Assembly (NCBI GenBank): GCA_902810695.1
Contig: CADDYV010000024.1
Location: 1 to 51,634, forward strand
Length of the DNA stretch: 51,634 nucleotides
Direction of reading: 5' to 3'
Origin: Actinomycetota bacterium
Lineage (GTDB): Bacteria > Actinomycetota > Rubrobacteria > Rubrobacterales > Rubrobacteraceae
The position numbers and the translations under genes were made by a program. The notes under the pieces are model-generated. The model was given only the letters and a program-made list of their open reading frames with translations, was not told the DNA's origin and did no database searches. This document shows, piece after piece, positions 1-17,630 of this stretch. The stretch's first letter is position 1. Every line of letters starts with the position of its first letter.

Positions 1-106
1 GATAGGAAGCGGCTTCAAGCAGCGTAACCCGGTGCCCCGCCCGTCCGAGCAGGGCGGCAGTCGCGAGTCCCCCGATACCCCCGCCCACGACCACTATCCG
101 CTTCAC
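1..106 (-). CDS. FAD-dependent carotenoid desaturase-type oxidoreductase (N-terminal fragment)
   Basis: Only the first 35 codons lie in the window; the gene runs off the left edge. The GTG start at 106 opens on a beta-strand and Rossmann loop VVVGGGIGGLATAALLGRAG, the dinucleotide-binding GxGxxG signature of the CrtI/CrtD/amine-oxidase family. The start overlaps the stop of the upstream lycopene elongase gene by four bases (GTGA, 103-106), so the two are probably translationally coupled. A second CrtI-like enzyme beside a lycopene elongase suggests a CrtD-type 3,4-desaturase of C50 carotenoid synthesis. That assignment rests on context; the fragment only shows an FAD-binding fold. Confidence 0.7.
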   Translation of the reverse strand, partial: MKRIVVVGGGIGGLATAALLGRAGHRVTLLEAASY

Positions 107-945
107 GGCCACAGGCCCAGGCTGAGCGCCGCGACGAGCTGCACCCCGGCTATGGTCCCCGCGACGTAGGGGAAGGCGATGGACCACCTGTACAGGGAGT
201 GCGCGGTTGCTGGGGTGGGGTTGCGGTAGAGGGCCAGGAGGAGAACTGCGCCCGTGATCGCGTTCACCGCCGCAACGAGCGGGCTGAGGAGCGCGAAGCA
301 CGCGGTCGCCACCGCCCACCACACCCCACTCCAGAGGACCACCCCCCGCACCCCGAGCCGGACGACCGTCGTGGTGATGCCCGCGGTACGATCCTCCTCA
401 ACATCCTGCACCGCGTCGAAGGTGTGCTTGGCCGCGCTCCAGGCCATCAGCCCGATCGCCACCGGCCAGACCGGCGAGAACTTGAGCGCCAGCGGAACGA
501 ACACCAGCGGGAACGCGTAGGCGGCATTGCTCAAAGAGTCCATATAAGGTCGGGCCTTGAAGCGCAGGGGCGGCACCGAGTAGCCGAGGAAGATCACCGT
601 GTACAGGAGCATCCACACCACCGCTCCGCCGGGGAATCTCCAGAAGAAGTAGGCCACGAACGGGGCGTTCGAGATCAGAACTCCCCGCCAGATCGGGGAT
701 ACCTCGGAAGGCGCTATCCTCGCCCCCTCAAGCGTTCCCTTGCGCGGGTTTTTGGCGTCGGTCTCCCGGTCGAAGATGTCGTTTACGCCGTAGATGAGCA
801 GGTTGAACGGCAAAGTCAGCCACAGGAGTATCGGCAGCGCCTCTACCCGCCACAACGCGCCGGTGAGCCACATCCCGATCACCGCCGGGCCTACCGTATT
901 GATCCACAATACGGGGCGGGAGATGTGCAGAAACCGCGCGAGCAT
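103..945 (-). CDS. UbiA-family prenyltransferase, probable lycopene elongase/hydratase
   Basis: A 280-residue polytopic membrane protein of the UbiA superfamily. The first Mg-diphosphate motif is NDIFDRETD (residues 55-63) and the second is DAVQDVEED (about 175-185), as expected for prenyl-diphosphate binding. Its place between a CrtI-like gene and divergent cruF fits a lycopene elongase (LyeJ/CrtEb type) that adds C5 units to lycopene ends in the bacterioruberin pathway. No ribosome-binding site is visible. A TATATT hexamer on this strand (957-952) ends 7 bases before the ATG, so the mRNA is probably leaderless. Other UbiA members (menaquinone or heme synthesis) are possible but less likely here. 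Confidence 0.82.
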   Translation of the reverse strand: MLARFLHISRPVLWINTVGPAVIGMWLTGALWRVEALPILLWLTLPFNLLIYGVNDIFDRETDAKNPRKGTLEGARIAPSEVSPIWRGVLISNAPFVAYFFWRFPGGAVVWMLLYTVIFLGYSVPPLRFKARPYMDSLSNAAYAFPLVFVPLALKFSPVWPVAIGLMAWSAAKHTFDAVQDVEEDRTAGITTTVVRLGVRGVVLWSGVWWAVATACFALLSPLVAAVNAITGAVLLLALYRNPTPATAHSLYRWSIAFPYVAGTIAGVQLVAALSLGLWP

Positions 946-995
946 CGGTTCAATATACCAGCCGGGTGGCCGGGTACTGATATACCATATTCGCC
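946..995. promoter_or_regulatory. Divergent promoter region between lycopene elongase gene and cruF
   Basis: These 50 bp separate two divergent carotenoid genes. The octamer ATATACCA occurs twice in direct orientation (953-960 and 980-987). A minus-strand TATATT (957-952) and a plus-strand TACCAT (983-988) sit 7 and 8 bases from their start codons, and neither gene has a Shine-Dalgarno sequence. No convincing -35 is seen. The two octamers match the CarH 11-mer pattern (nnTnTACAnnn) except for one base (TACC for TACA), so weak CarH control is possible but not shown. Confidence 0.5.
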
Positions 996-1790: not shown

Positions 1791-2684
1791 TCATTCCGCC
1801 GGGTTTTTCCGCCGGAGCAGTTTAGCCCCGGCATCGGCGGCCTCCCGGAGATCCCGGCTCAAAAACCACTCGCCTGCCGCCTGCTGCAACGCCTCGCTCT
1901 CGAAGGCCCGTCCTCCGACGAAGATGCGTACACCGCTTTCGGCCTCGAAATCTGGCAGCGCCTCCAGGATCTGCCCGGCTCGCTTCTCTTCTGAGACGGA
2001 GAGGAAGACCGCCTCGGCGCCGAACTCCACGATGAAGCCGCGCAGGTCCTCAAGCGGGATATTCTGCCCGAGGTACAGAACATCGAGGCCGCGACGAACC
2101 AGGAAGAGCGCGAACATCAGGGCTCCTATCTCGTGCATCTCTCCCGGAACGCATCCCACGATCACACGAATCACTCCTCGTCCGGCCTTTCTCTCCTCGA
2201 CCAGACGCCGGATCAGGATGGACTTCAAAGACTCACTTACCCAGTGCTCGTGCGCCACCCCGATATCACCCCGGCTCCACATCTCTCCTATCCGCACGAG
2301 CAGCGGTTGCACGACCACGAGGCACACCTTTTCGACCCCGTGCCCCAGGAAAGCCCTCTCCAGCACCGCATCCGCCTTCTCCCGCTCTCCGGCGAGAAGT
2401 TGTTCCAAAAGATCATCCCGGATGGTATCGAGAGAAAATCCTCCCTCTAACCCCGAGGGTTCCCCCTTGAATAGCTCAACAGCCTGCCGGGCGCTCAGGC
2501 CCCACTCTATCTTCTCCCGGATCCAGCGCACAGCCCGGATGTCTTCCTCCGAATACAGCCGGTACCCCGACGCACTCCGCGCCGGAGAGGGTACCCCGTA
2601 GCGCCGCTCCCAGGCCCGGAGCAACTCCGGCGTTACCCCCGCCCGCTCCGCAGCTACCTTCACCGTGTAGATCCCCTCGCCCAA
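1791..2684 (-). CDS. carH: CarH/LitR-type MerR regulator, adenosylcobalamin-dependent photoreceptor
   Basis: 297 residues. An N-terminal MerR winged helix (residues 5-75, YTVKVAAERAGVTPELLRAW) is followed by a four-helix bundle with the CarH light-sensing signature W136-x9-E146-H147, then a B12-binding Rossmann domain with E182-M-H184-E-I-G. Such proteins bind AdoCbl as dark tetramers, repress carotenoid genes and fall apart in light. The residue after W136 is Ser, where the Thermus protein has the His that ligates cobalt after photolysis. The start is TTG with GGGAGG a few bases upstream. A TATAAT on this strand (2740-2735) lies inside the operator repeats, suggesting autorepression. It is divergent from crtI. 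Confidence 0.9.
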   Translation of the reverse strand: MGEGIYTVKVAAERAGVTPELLRAWERRYGVPSPARSASGYRLYSEEDIRAVRWIREKIEWGLSARQAVELFKGEPSGLEGGFSLDTIRDDLLEQLLAGEREKADAVLERAFLGHGVEKVCLVVVQPLLVRIGEMWSRGDIGVAHEHWVSESLKSILIRRLVEERKAGRGVIRVIVGCVPGEMHEIGALMFALFLVRRGLDVLYLGQNIPLEDLRGFIVEFGAEAVFLSVSEEKRAGQILEALPDFEAESGVRIFVGGRAFESEALQQAAGEWFLSRDLREAADAGAKLLRRKNPAE

Positions 2685-2702: not shown

Positions 2703-2756
2703 TTGATCACTCCGCTCCTCAATGCTACCATAACATTATACAAACATTGTACAAAC
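2703..2756. promoter_or_regulatory. carH-crtI divergent promoter with tandem CarH operator repeats
   Basis: Two adjoining 11-bp direct repeats, ATTATACAAAC (2735-2745) and ATTGTACAAAC (2746-2756), both fit the nnTnTACAnnn element known for Thermus CarH, which binds several such repeats in tandem. A third, degenerate unit may lie at 2724-2734. A plausible crtI promoter is TTGATC (2703-2708), 17 bp, TACCAT (2726-2731). The carH -10, TATAAT, is the complement of 2735-2740. CarH bound here would block both promoters. Confidence 0.72.
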
Positions 2757-2771
2757 CTTGGAGAGAAGGAT

Positions 2772-4268
2772 TTGACTACGAAGCGGGTAGTGGTGATAGG
2801 GGCGGGAATTGGCGGGCTGGCGGCGGCGATCCGGCTTGCGGCTATGGGCTTCGAGGTCGAGGTCTTCGAGAAGAACGCCCGGATCGGGGGGCGCATGGGC
2901 CGTCTGCGGGGTTCGGGTTTCACCTTCGATACGGGGCCGACGCTCCTGCTTATGAGTGATGTGTACCGGGAGCTATTCGAGTTCGCTGGACGATATCTCG
3001 ACGACTACGTGGAACTGTTGCCTTTGAGCCCGAATTACCGGGTTCACTTCGGAGATGGGGATTCGATGCTCGTCTCTCCGTCGCTGCCGCAGCTTATCCC
3101 GGAGCTGGAGCGAATCGAGCCGGGTGTCACCCCCAGATTCTACAGGTTTCTGGAAGACGCCTGCCTGAAATACCGGATCGGGCGCAGAGAGTTCGTCGAG
3201 CGGGACTTCGAGAAGGCGAAGAACTTCTTCGGGCCGCGCAACCTGCGGCTCCTACTGAAGACCAGAGCCACGGGAAACTACTACCGCTCCGTCTCGAAGT
3301 TCTTCCGGACGGACAAGCTGCGCCAGGTGTTCAGCTTCCAGACCATGTACCTGGGGCTCTCTCCATTCGAGGCTCCGGCGGTCTATGCCCTGCTCCCCTA
3401 CACCGAGCTGGCCGAAGATGGGCTCTGGTTTCCGCGCGGCGGGATGTACTCCCTCATCGAGGCACTGGGCCGTCTCGCGGATGAATTGGGGGTGAGGGTA
3501 CACCTGAAGAGTGCGGTGGAAGAGATCGTGGTGACCAAGGGCAGGGCTGTCGGGGTACGGGTGGATGGAGAGGATATCTCTGCGGATGCGGTGCTCGCCA
3601 ACGCCGACCTCCCGTACGTCTACCGGAGCCTGCTGCCGGAATTCGCCTCTATCAAGGACTTCCGGTGGCGCTCTCCGCAGCGGCTGAAGTATACGGCCTC
3701 GGCGTTCATGCTGTACCTCGGCCTGAGCCGCGAGTACGACCACTTGCTACACCACAACGTCTACCTCTCGGAGGACTACCGGGAGAACTTCGGGGCCATC
3801 TTCCACCACGGACGCCTGCCCGAGGACCCGTCCTTCTACACCAACGTCGCCTCGCGCACGGATCCCGGCTCCGCCCCGGCGGGGATGACGGCGCTCTACG
3901 TACTGGTCCCGGTGCCGCACCTGGGGCCGGGGGTTGAATGGGGGCACGAAGGCGAGCCGTTCAGGGAGAGGGTCTTGGATCTGCTGGCGGAGAAAGCCGG
4001 GATGGAGGACATCCGGCGGAGGGTGGTCTTCGAGGAAATCAGAACGCCCGAGGACTGGAAGTGGGACTACAACCTGGAAGAGGGTGCGGCCTTCGGGATC
4101 GGGCATGGGATATCGCAGGTCGGGTATTTCAGGCCGCCTCTCGCCTCGCGCAGCATCGGTAGGTTGTACTTCGTCGGGGCCAGCACCCGTCCCGGTACTG
4201 GGGTTCCGCTCGTGACCATCGGCGCCCGCCTCGTTGCCGGGCGTATAGGCCGGGAGGTCGGGCGGTGA
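2772..4268 (+). CDS. crtI: Phytoene desaturase, CrtI type
   Basis: 498 residues from a TTG start at 2772, preceded by GGAGAGAAGGA. A longer in-frame reading from 2703 would include the operator region and is unlikely. The N-terminus holds the FAD motif VVVIGAGIGG (residues 6-15) followed by a Glu-containing strand (EVFEKN) and the GGRMGR loop. The C-terminus has the bacterial-type desaturase block GTGVPLVTIGARLVAGRI. The enzyme desaturates phytoene to lycopene. Its stop overlaps the crtB start by four bases (GTGA), so crtI and crtB are coupled. CarH repeats just upstream imply light-induced expression. Confidence 0.92.
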   Translation: MTTKRVVVIGAGIGGLAAAIRLAAMGFEVEVFEKNARIGGRMGRLRGSGFTFDTGPTLLLMSDVYRELFEFAGRYLDDYVELLPLSPNYRVHFGDGDSMLVSPSLPQLIPELERIEPGVTPRFYRFLEDACLKYRIGRREFVERDFEKAKNFFGPRNLRLLLKTRATGNYYRSVSKFFRTDKLRQVFSFQTMYLGLSPFEAPAVYALLPYTELAEDGLWFPRGGMYSLIEALGRLADELGVRVHLKSAVEEIVVTKGRAVGVRVDGEDISADAVLANADLPYVYRSLLPEFASIKDFRWRSPQRLKYTASAFMLYLGLSREYDHLLHHNVYLSEDYRENFGAIFHHGRLPEDPSFYTNVASRTDPGSAPAGMTALYVLVPVPHLGPGVEWGHEGEPFRERVLDLLAEKAGMEDIRRRVVFEEIRTPEDWKWDYNLEEGAAFGIGHGISQVGYFRPPLASRSIGRLYFVGASTRPGTGVPLVTIGARLVAGRIGREVGR

Positions 4269-5164
4269 GGCTGGAGGAGTGCTACGAGTTCTGCCGTAAG
4301 GTCGAGAAGAATCACAGCCGCACCTACTATTTCTCCACGCAGCTCTTCCCATCTGGGGTGAGGCATCACGTACACGCTCTATACGCCTTCACGCGCTTTG
4401 CCGATGAAATCGTGGACCTCTCCGGCGATGTGAGTCCTGAAGCCCGGCTCTTCTCCCTCGAAGCCTTTGAGATGGAGGCTGTGGCAGCGATGCTCGGCGA
4501 GGAGGTCGAGAGTCCCATTTTGCGGGCGTTCGCGAACACGGCGCGAGGGTGCGGCATAGAATCGGGACATGTGAAGTCGTTTATGCGCAGCATGAAGATG
4601 GATACCTGCATATTGCGCTACCCGACCTACGGGGATCTCGAAGAGTACATGTACGGGAGCGCGGCGGTCGTCGGGATCATGATGTGCCGGGTCATGGGAG
4701 CCAGACAGGAGGAGGCGCTGCCGCACGCCGAAGCTCTGGGAGAGGCTATGCAGCTTACGAACTTCCTGCGGGATATCCGGGAGGACTGGGAGCGGGGGAG
4801 GGTCTATCTGCCGCTCGAAGATTTGCAGCGTTTCGGGTATTCGGAGGCGGACCTCGGTTCGGGCCGGGTGAACGAGGCGTTCGTCGAGCTGATGCGCTTC
4901 GAGATAGAACGGGCGCGGATGCTCTACCTGATCGCAGACCAGGGGATGCACCACATACCACGCAGATGCCGTTACCCGGTAGTCGTGGCCAGAGAACTCT
5001 ACGCCGCCATTCTTGATCGGATAGAGGCTCTTGGCTACGACGTCTTCTCCGGTCGGGCCGAGACCACCTTCGCCGAGAAGGTGCGCGTGGCGGCGTGCGC
5101 GATCCGCAAGCCGGGTGAGATCCTATCTCGCGGTCCGAGCGTAAGAGTTGCCACAACCTGGTGA
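4265..5164 (+). CDS. crtB: Phytoene synthase
   Basis: 299 residues, all within the squalene/phytoene synthase fold. The two Asp-rich substrate-Mg motifs are visible: DEIVD (residues 47-51) and DIREDWERGRVYLP (about 170-183). It condenses two geranylgeranyl diphosphates to phytoene. The GTG start overlaps the crtI stop by four bases. It is the second gene of a crtI-crtB-SRPBCC unit. Confidence 0.93.
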   Translation: MRLEECYEFCRKVEKNHSRTYYFSTQLFPSGVRHHVHALYAFTRFADEIVDLSGDVSPEARLFSLEAFEMEAVAAMLGEEVESPILRAFANTARGCGIESGHVKSFMRSMKMDTCILRYPTYGDLEEYMYGSAAVVGIMMCRVMGARQEEALPHAEALGEAMQLTNFLRDIREDWERGRVYLPLEDLQRFGYSEADLGSGRVNEAFVELMRFEIERARMLYLIADQGMHHIPRRCRYPVVVARELYAAILDRIEALGYDVFSGRAETTFAEKVRVAACAIRKPGEILSRGPSVRVATTW

Positions 5165-5171
5165 GAGCTTG

Positions 5172-5678
5172 ATGCAGCATTATCTGGCACTCGGGGCTCC
5201 GGAGTACACCCTGGCGCGGGAGCAGTGGGTGCCGCAGCCGGTCCAGGAGGTCTTCCCTTTTTTCGAGGACCCGTACAACCTGGCACTTATCACTCCCGGC
5301 TGGCTGGATTTCCGCGTGTTGTCCATGCAGCCGCGCGAGGTGAGGCCGGGGACCGTTATCACCTACCGCCTGCGCTGGCTCGGAATTCCCTACCGGTGGC
5401 GGACCCGGATCTCCGAGTGGGTCCCCAACCGGCGCTTCGTGGATCTTCAGACCAGCGGCCCTTATGTCCTGTGGCATCACACCCATACCTTCGAGGAGTG
5501 CTCGGGCGGAACGTTATTGAGAGACCACGTCCGCTACCGCCTGCCTTTCGGACCGCTCGGGGTGCTGGCGCACGCCATCGTCGTGCGGCGGCAGCTCGAC
5601 GAAATCTTCGACTACCGCAGGCAGAAGATAGCGACTCTCTTTGCGGGCGGCAGGGTTTACCACCGTCCGCCCAAATGA
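5172..5678 (+). CDS. SRPBCC/polyketide-cyclase-like lipid-binding fold protein
   Basis: 168 residues starting at ATG 5172, with GGTGAGAG upstream and 7 bp after crtB. It resembles START/SRPBCC proteins: an N-terminal strand and helix (QEVFPFFEDPYNLALITPGW), then strands with RTRISEWVPNRRFVDLQ and a C-terminal helix VRRQLDEIFDYR. The fold forms a hydrophobic cavity. Linkage to crtIB suggests a role with carotenoids or their precursors, but no catalytic residues are evident and the function is unknown. Confidence 0.75.
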   Translation: MQHYLALGAPEYTLAREQWVPQPVQEVFPFFEDPYNLALITPGWLDFRVLSMQPREVRPGTVITYRLRWLGIPYRWRTRISEWVPNRRFVDLQTSGPYVLWHHTHTFEECSGGTLLRDHVRYRLPFGPLGVLAHAIVVRRQLDEIFDYRRQKIATLFAGGRVYHRPPK

Positions 5679-5781: not shown

Positions 5782-6495
5782 ATGATAAGACACGATACCG
5801 GAGGGTTCGCCGCTACCAGCGCCCCGGAGGGCTTCACACTGAGGGATCTCGAGGATGCGGGCCTCAGGGTCGTGGAGCGCCGTTACCGGGCCAAAGACAT
5901 CATCTTCGCGCCCGGAGACCCCGACGATCAGCTCTACTTCCTGCTCAAGGGTACCATAAGGCTCTACAAGCTCTACGGGGCTTACAAGGAGGCTACCACC
6001 GCGCTTCTCAAGGACGGGGGTATCTTCGGAAAGTTGAGCCTGGTCGAGGGTCGCTGGCAGGATGTTTTCGCCGAGGCGGTAACCGACGTCCAGATAGCGG
6101 GCGTCCAGAAAGCCTCCCTGGAACGAGCCATAAAGAGCAATCCGGACTTCGCGCTCAGGCTCTTCTCCTCCCTCTCCGAGAGGCTCAGGCAGTCAGACGA
6201 GGTCATAGAGAGCCTCCTGCACCGGGAGGTCTCCACCCGGCTCGCGACGCTGCTTTTGAACCTTAGCGACCGCCTGGGAGAAGAGGGTGAGTCCGGTGTA
6301 ACGCTCGGTATCCGGCTGACGCACCAGGACCTGGCGAGCATGATCGCCTCTACCCGCGAGGCCGTCTCCAAGGTGATGAGCGAGTTCCAGCGCGATGGCT
6401 ACATAGAGGTGTGCAGCCGCCGGATAGTGATCACAAACCGCGAGATGCTCGAGGAGCAGGCCGCCGGACCCTCTGGTCTTGGATATAGTTATTGA
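5782..6495 (+). CDS. Crp/Fnr-family transcriptional regulator
   Basis: 237 residues from ATG 5782, with AAAGGA upstream. An N-terminal cyclic-nucleotide-binding jelly roll (residues about 25-135, including DDQLYFLLKGTIRLYKL and FGKLSLVEGRWQDVFAEA) is joined by the dimerisation helix to a Crp-type winged helix with LTHQDLASMIASTREAVSKV. The Cys residues of Fnr iron-sulphur sensors are absent. It lies 103 bp after the carotenoid SRPBCC gene on the same strand and has its own leader. The ligand and targets are unknown. A gene-neighbour role in pigment or stress control is inference only. Confidence 0.85.
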   Translation: MIRHDTGGFAATSAPEGFTLRDLEDAGLRVVERRYRAKDIIFAPGDPDDQLYFLLKGTIRLYKLYGAYKEATTALLKDGGIFGKLSLVEGRWQDVFAEAVTDVQIAGVQKASLERAIKSNPDFALRLFSSLSERLRQSDEVIESLLHREVSTRLATLLLNLSDRLGEEGESGVTLGIRLTHQDLASMIASTREAVSKVMSEFQRDGYIEVCSRRIVITNREMLEEQAAGPSGLGYSY

Positions 6496-17196: not shown

Positions 17197-17630
17197 AGGG
17201 TTTTCTCCTCGATTATCCTGCTTGACAATTTCTCCGTTGCTGTTGCTGGCGACCGAGACACCGTTGACTCCTCTCGAACCGGATCCCTGCAATCAGCTTG
17301 TGAACCACCTCCTTACTCTGAAGCCGCCACAGAACGCAAAACCGGCCACGGACGCCTCTCAAGTGTCCGGTAGCCGGTTGCACCACTGGCTCCTCCCGCT
17401 CCCTCCTCGAAGTAACCTTCAAGGAAGTGCCCACTCATCGGGGAGACGGGACTCTAAGCCTCTACCATATCGGGCCAGTCTTGTAAAAATGAATGCTATA
17501 GGAGTTCGAGATGCGGCGTATCCCCCATTTGTACTATTTTGGGCAATCTATCAAAGTTTTTGGAAGGTGATCTCCGGGAAGAGCGTTGGGACGGAGGGCG
17601 GCGATGGCCGTGCTGCTGTGGATCGAAGGA
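17197..17630. other. 434-bp non-coding gap with a structured segment
   Basis: No convincing gene lies here. At 17340-17379 the arms AACCGGC/GCCGGTT enclose inner arms GGAC/GTCC with an 11-base loop. On the minus strand this sits about 145 bases upstream of the ABM gene and is followed by TAAGGAGGTG, a near-perfect Shine-Dalgarno with no start codon at a usable distance (17308-17317). A structured 5' leader, or the remnant of a lost gene, are both possible. No known riboswitch class fits well. Confidence 0.4.

What the first reader, a model, noticed from the sequence alone, without database searches (positions are those of the whole stretch)
2724..2756. Tandem 11-bp CarH operator repeats between carH and crtI
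ATTATACAAAC and ATTGTACAAAC adjoin each other exactly, and each fits the nnTnTACAnnn unit reported for Thermus CarH. They overlap the carH -10 (TATAAT) and lie just downstream of a plausible crtI -10. This predicts B12- and light-dependent control of carotenoids, with autorepression, in a lineage outside Thermus and Myxococcus.
Basis: partly seen in the sequence, partly recalled or inferred. Interest (0 to 1): 0.7.

Follow-up and report, generated by a model that had tools for sequence, protein, structure and literature searches.

The report
CarH light-switch operator before carotenoid genes
A short pair of back-to-back DNA repeats sits between a vitamin-B12 light-sensor gene (carH) and the carotenoid genes it probably represses; this is a known kind of switch, found here in a new bacterial family, with an altered sensor residue and a promoter unlike that of its relatives.

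Summary
The repeats are real: ATTATACAAAC (2735-2745) and ATTGTACAAAC (2746-2756) adjoin exactly, with no other match within 3 mismatches in the 3.59-Mb genome. Odds by dinucleotide shuffle are 2e-4 to 4e-4. The divergent gene encodes a CarH: MerR domain, two B12 domains, Wx9EH and ExHxxG. It groups with Thermus CarH rather than with sampled actinobacterial CarHs, and the T. thermophilus operator shows the same 11-bp TnnACA repeats. I judge it a CarH operator overlapping the crtI start and the carH -10.

Two points were not in the finding. (1) The residue matching TtCarH His132, the light-state ligand, is Ser here but His in the nearest relatives. (2) Relatives lack carH beside crtI, and nearly all their crtI promoters carry a CRP/NtcA-type site before the -10 (20/27 exact, 26/27 relaxed). 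This genome lacks it, so control appears swapped from activator to repressor.

Conservation of the repeats cannot be tested: no held relative keeps the pair. Binding and light response are inferred.

The parts
2735..2745 (+). Direct repeat 1, ATTATACAAAC (core TATACA 2737-2742)
   Evidence: read directly; unique 22-mer; shuffles
2746..2756 (+). Direct repeat 2, ATTGTACAAAC (core TGTACA 2748-2753)
   Evidence: read directly; unique 22-mer; shuffles
2757..2767 (+). Possible weak third repeat, CTTGGAGAGAA (core TGGAGA, 3 of 4 fixed bases); overlaps the crtI Shine-Dalgarno region
   Evidence: scores 4, 4, 3
2703..2708 (+). Likely crtI -35, TTGATC
   Evidence: 17 bp before the -10; stands where relatives carry the CRP/NtcA-type site
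2726..2731 (+). Likely crtI -10, TACCAT
   Evidence: TGCTACCAT aligns with TGCTAGCAT in most relatives
2735..2740 (-). Possible carH -10, TATAAT (no good -35)
   Evidence: read directly
1791..2684 (-). carH: MerR HTH with AdoCbl-binding domains, TTG start; Ser137 (codon 2276-2274) in place of TtCarH His132
2772..4268 (+). crtI, phytoene desaturase family (TTG start after GGAGAGAAGG)
   Evidence: TIGR02734, 477 bits, above cut-off
4265..5164 (+). crtB, phytoene synthase family
   Evidence: PF00494; position after crtI conserved in relatives
5172..5678 (+). SRPBCC (polyketide cyclase-like) gene, probably same operon
   Evidence: PF03364 for the longer ORF
5782..6495 (+). CRP/FNR-family regulator, nearest to NtcA and conserved across the family; not an LdrP by score
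996..1778 (+). cruF-like carotenoid hydratase gene, convergent with carH; no TnnACA tandem read in its upstream gap
   Evidence: PF04240; TIGR03460 132 bits, below its 155 cut-off
103..945 (-). UbiA-family prenyltransferase gene (likely C50 carotenoid elongase)
   Evidence: PF01040; PRK13595 prenyltransferase, above cut-off

Best explanation
The repeats are the operator of the divergently encoded CarH. In the dark, CarH loaded with adenosylcobalamin forms an oligomer whose DNA-binding domains sit on the tandem 11-bp units (two good, perhaps one weak). Bound there it covers the start of crtI transcription and the carH -10, so it represses the crtI-crtB-SRPBCC operon and its own gene. Green, blue or UV light breaks the cobalt-carbon bond, the oligomer loosens, and both promoters open. 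Shown here: the repeats, the CarH domains and B12 signature residues, the divergent arrangement, the match to the Thermus operator, and an adenosyltransferase gene in the genome. Inferred: binding, AdoCbl loading, repression, light release. The light-release step is least certain because the His132 ligand is Ser here.
For: Unique tandem well above chance. CarH identity: Pfam MerR and both B12 domains, E 1.1e-41 to TtCarH 5c8d, Wx9EH and ExHxxG present, groups with Thermus CarH at 97/97. The T. thermophilus carH-crtB gap shows TGTACA/TTGACA/TATACA at 11-bp steps. The crtI -10 is supported by alignment to relatives. Among crtI upstream regions of the family, only this one has the repeats and only this one has carH alongside. 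AdoCbl-forming adenosyltransferase gene present. Operators with two full and two weak repeats are footprinted in H. ochraceum (PMC9304148).
Against: Only two full repeats, against three or four in Thermus and Bacillus. Units read towards crtI, whereas the Thermus ones read towards carH. No relative keeps the pair, so conservation is untested. His132 is Ser. Below NCBI's CarH naming cut-off (184 of 400 bits). The two family members with carH elsewhere lack the repeats at carH.
Confidence: 0.72

Rival explanations
1. CarH binds and represses here, but as a B12-only or weakly light-responsive sensor: without His132 the light-state bis-His ligation cannot form, so light releases it poorly and the main signal is AdoCbl supply or redox state.
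For: Ser137 at the His132 position; TtCarH H132A mostly stays tetrameric in light (PMC10442372); the close relatives G014 and G026 keep His, so the change is recent and needs two base changes from the relatives' CAC to AGC.
Against: CtMerR with Arg there still monomerises in light, and the position varies in known photoreceptors (PMC11796333); an earlier report of H132A disassembly is noted in PMC10442372; the other light-signature residues are intact.
Confidence: 0.3
2. The site is a dyad (TTaTACAA-ACA-TTGTAcAA) or a drifted form of the element CGTATACT..ATATACC that relatives have at about the same place downstream of the -10, bound by a regulator other than CarH.
For: 7 of 8 arm positions pair; most relatives without carH have GTATAC or a close variant in the same place.
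Against: In relatives the spacing of the two half elements varies from about 9 to 12 bp and the units differ, while here they are near-identical at exactly 11 bp. Class II LitR geometry TRTACA-N12-TGTAYA is absent at this place.
Confidence: 0.13
3. Chance: an AT-rich promoter region that happens to hold two similar 11-mers.
For: The bare core is only mildly commoner than its reversed control genome-wide (62 against 44 with up to 1 mismatch).
Against: The 22-mer is unique even at 3 mismatches; shuffle odds are 2e-4 to 4e-4 in this gap; it lies between carH and its expected target.
Confidence: 0.07

Closest known systems
Thermus thermophilus CarH (LitR) and its crtB-carH operator on pTT27
   Same: Divergent carH and carotenoid gene; 11-bp TnnACA tandem repeats overlapping promoter elements; CarH domains, Wx9EH, ExHxxG; sister group in the tree
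   Different: Partner gene is crtI, not crtB-phr; two full repeats instead of three; opposite repeat direction; Ser for His132; no ldrP next to carH
Divergent crtI-carH pairs of Sorangiineae (myxobacteria; PMC9304148)
   Same: Same gene pair in divergent order, with 11-bp repeats in the gap
   Different: Different phylum; those gaps have one full repeat flanked by two or three weak ones
Bacillus megaterium CarH and Haliangium ochraceum CarH operators (PMC9304148)
   Same: Tandem 11-bp TnnACA repeats at a -35 or -10; H. ochraceum has two full and two weak repeats
   Different: Four repeat positions each; here two full and at most one weak
NtcA/CRP class II activated promoters (GTAN8TAC about 22 bp before TAN3T; PMC3898017)
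   Same: The form of the crtI promoter in the relatives
   Different: Absent from the window crtI promoter

Membership tests
CarH (class I LitR) | MerR-type HTH plus both AdoCbl-binding subdomains | tested here: met
   Pfam MerR_1, B12-binding_2, B12-binding, all above cut-off
CarH (class I LitR) | Wx9EH and ExHxxG motifs (said to define CarH, PMC8156234) | tested here: met
   W-SRGDIGVAH-EH and GEMHEIG; same residues in the pairwise alignment
CarH (class I LitR) | GxxW, EH, GxxH, GxxxP light-response signature (PMC11796333) | tested here: met
   GEMW, EH, GEMH, GQNIP in the protein
CarH (class I LitR) | His132 as light-state upper ligand (seen in TtCarH; variable in others, so not strictly defining) | tested here: not met
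   Ser137 at that place
CarH (class I LitR) | NCBIfam equivalog NF052513 score of at least 400 bits | tested here: not met
   184.4 bits, though CarH is by far the best family
CarH (class I LitR) | AdoCbl-dependent dark oligomer that dissociates in light | not testable with these tools
   needs purified protein
CarH operator | Tandem 11-bp repeats with TnnACA | tested here: met
   two full units, one weak
CarH operator | Three or more full repeats as in T. thermophilus and B. megaterium | tested here: not met
   two full repeats only; fewer are documented in H. ochraceum and S. cellulosum (PMC9304148)
CarH operator | Overlap with target promoter elements | tested here: met
   overlaps the carH TATAAT and follows the crtI -10 supported by relatives; start sites not mapped
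CarH operator | Conservation in relatives with the carH-crtI pair | tested here: inconclusive
   no other held family genome was found to have the pair
CarH operator | AdoCbl-dependent footprint | not testable with these tools
   needs protein and DNA
Class II LitR operator (TRTACA-N12-TGTAYA) | 12-bp spacing between TRTACA and TGTAYA | tested here: not met
   no match at this place with up to 2 mismatches
LdrP (Thermus CRP/FNR regulator next to carH), for gene 5782-6495 | NCBIfam LdrP score of at least 300 bits | tested here: not met
   67.6 bits; NtcA model 139 bits (its cut-off 245)

The most novel reading that the evidence does not exclude
In this lineage the crtI promoter was switched from a family-wide CRP/NtcA-type activated promoter to a CarH-repressed one: the activator site was lost, a -35-like hexamer and an 11-bp repeat operator were gained, and carH took the divergent place. 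In addition, this Thermus-group CarH lost the His132 light-state ligand, so it either releases DNA in light by another route or now reports mainly coenzyme B12.
Probability: 0.35. Interest if true: 0.55.

Novelty: new member of a known kind. Interest (0 to 1): 0.4.

Why it matters
It adds what is probably the family Rubrobacteraceae to the bacteria with CarH-type control of carotenoid genes, apparently with a single control site in the genome. The natural His-to-Ser change at the disputed light-state ligand, inside a CarH of the Thermus group, gives a direct test of whether bis-His ligation is needed for light release. The comparison with 27 relatives offers a compact case of a promoter changed from activator to repressor control.

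Tried and rejected
(1) Third repeat upstream at 2724-2734: rejected, 1 of 4 fixed bases. (2) More CarH sites in the genome: the four other exact TnTACA-N5-TnTACA sites lie by genes that look like a mur ligase, a GntR regulator with a transporter, a solute-binding protein and a methyltransferase (read by eye from the translations), none carotenoid-related. (3) Repeats at carH in G014 and G026: none. (4) The CRP gene downstream as LdrP: rejected by profile scores. (5) Class II LitR geometry: absent. (6) carH-crt pairing as an actinobacterial habit: none of the sampled actinobacterial CarH loci shows crtI or crtB in the fetched flanks, mostly 1.5 kb; some have a photolyase gene. (7) Weak 11-bp TnnACA pairs occur upstream of a few distant actinobacterial CarH genes (L006, L046, L047, L048); suggestive only. 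(8) Whether the crtI-type CRP site stays elsewhere in this genome: little enriched over the reversed control (44 against 32). (9) The genome-contig scan found only one distant Streptomyces homologue. (10) The first tree used wrong reading frames for G014 and G026 and was redone. No structure prediction was run.

Full report
OBSERVATION. The window holds ATTATACAAAC (2735-2745) directly followed by ATTGTACAAAC (2746-2756). A search of the whole 3.59-Mb genome for the 22-mer with up to 3 mismatches finds this place alone, and the reversed control finds none. In 20,000 dinucleotide-preserving shuffles of the 87-bp gap between the carH and crtI start codons, a TnTACA pair at 11-bp spacing occurs in 0.02% and any adjacent 11-bp tandem of at least 10/11 identity in 0.04%. 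The shorter core alone is not rare. A 3-of-4 unit (TGGAGA) lies on the other side at 2757-2767 but is also the crtI ribosome-binding region.

THE REGULATOR. The divergent gene 1791-2684 encodes a MerR HTH and both B12-binding subdomains. It matches TtCarH over nearly its whole length (E 1.1e-41; 38.6% identity). The motifs said to define CarH, Wx9EH and ExHxxG (PMC8156234), are present, as are the residues of the GxxW, EH, GxxH and GxxxP light signature (PMC11796333). It scores below NCBI's naming cut-off for CarH (184 against 400 bits). In a tree of 19 proteins it groups with two family members (G014, G026) and then with Thermus CarH (97/97), apart from 13 other actinobacterial homologues; sampling is narrow and the root is by midpoint. 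An AdoCbl-forming adenosyltransferase gene is present.

HIS132. The residue beside the signature Trp, His132 in TtCarH, is Ser137 here (codon AGC, 2276-2274, minus strand). It is His in G014, G026 and the Thermus proteins examined, and A, E, Q, R, L or S in the other homologues read. In TtCarH this His becomes the upper cobalt ligand in the light, and the H132A variant mostly stays tetrameric in light; the same paper notes that an earlier study reported disassembly (PMC10442372). CtMerR, with Arg there, still monomerises (PMC11796333). So light release is plausible but not safe to assume.

THE OPERATOR. Read the same way, the T. thermophilus carH-crtB gap gives TGTACA, TTGACA and TATACA at 11-bp steps, in line with the published nnnnTnnACAn (PMC9304148). 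The window has two full units. Operators with two full and two weak repeats have been footprinted in H. ochraceum (PMC9304148). The units read towards crtI here and towards carH in Thermus. The carH-strand TATAAT lies inside unit 1 (no good -35), and the crtI -10 (TACCAT, 2726-2731) ends 3 bp before unit 1. CarH bound here would be expected to block both genes.

COMPARISON WITH RELATIVES. The family search covered 39 genomes including this one. crtI is found in 34, and full-length carH homologues only in G014 and G026 besides this genome, neither next to crtI. No crtI upstream region read from a relative has a TnnACA tandem, so the repeats go with the carH-crtI pair, but with a single case. 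In two genomes where the flank was read, the gene divergent from crtI is a methyltransferase-like gene, judged by eye from its translation.

PROMOTER SWAP. Of 27 relatives' crtI upstream regions, 20 match GTAN8TAC-N20-24-TAN3T exactly and 26 match with GTR in place of GTA, against 0.05% of shuffles for the exact form. That is the canonical NtcA/CRP class II layout, with the site centred near -41.5 (PMC3898017). The window has neither form. At that place it has TTGATC, 17 bp before TACCAT, which aligns with the relatives' TAGCAT. A CRP/FNR-family protein closest to NtcA is encoded just downstream of the crtI-crtB-SRPBCC genes in the window, and its orthologue lies about 12-23 kb from crtI in the five genomes compared where both fall on one contig; that it binds the site is a guess. 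The simplest reading is a change from activator to repressor control in this lineage.

WHERE IT COMES FROM. One relative's contig is 3,225,748 bases, which from memory is the length of the Rubrobacter xylanophilus DSM 9941 genome, and the C50-carotenoid genes (cruF-like, UbiA elongase) fit; Rubrobacteraceae is therefore likely but not proved. A paper search for Rubrobacter together with CarH returned nothing.

VERDICT. A real CarH-type operator, most likely functional: a new member of a known kind. The parts worth following are the His132-to-Ser change and the promoter swap.

Noticed in passing
window 17363-17472, minus strand: Rfam match to the c-di-GMP-II-GAG riboswitch aptamer (42.3 bits, gathering score 40).
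   Followed up: no
L100-L127, crtI upstream regions of relatives: A second conserved element, CGTATACT, often followed by ATATACC, lies just downstream of the TAGCAT -10 in most relatives; its binder is unknown.
   Followed up: partly
window 946-995: The short gap between the divergent ubiA-like and cruF-like genes holds two copies of ATATACC, resembling part of the element seen at crtI in relatives.
   Followed up: no
L004, L005 (G014, G026): These two family members carry carH (63-66% identical) away from crtI, with no operator repeats found next to it; its targets there are unknown.
   Followed up: partly
L038, L041, L050, L061: Several distant actinobacterial carH homologues lie near a DNA photolyase gene instead of crt genes.
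   Followed up: no
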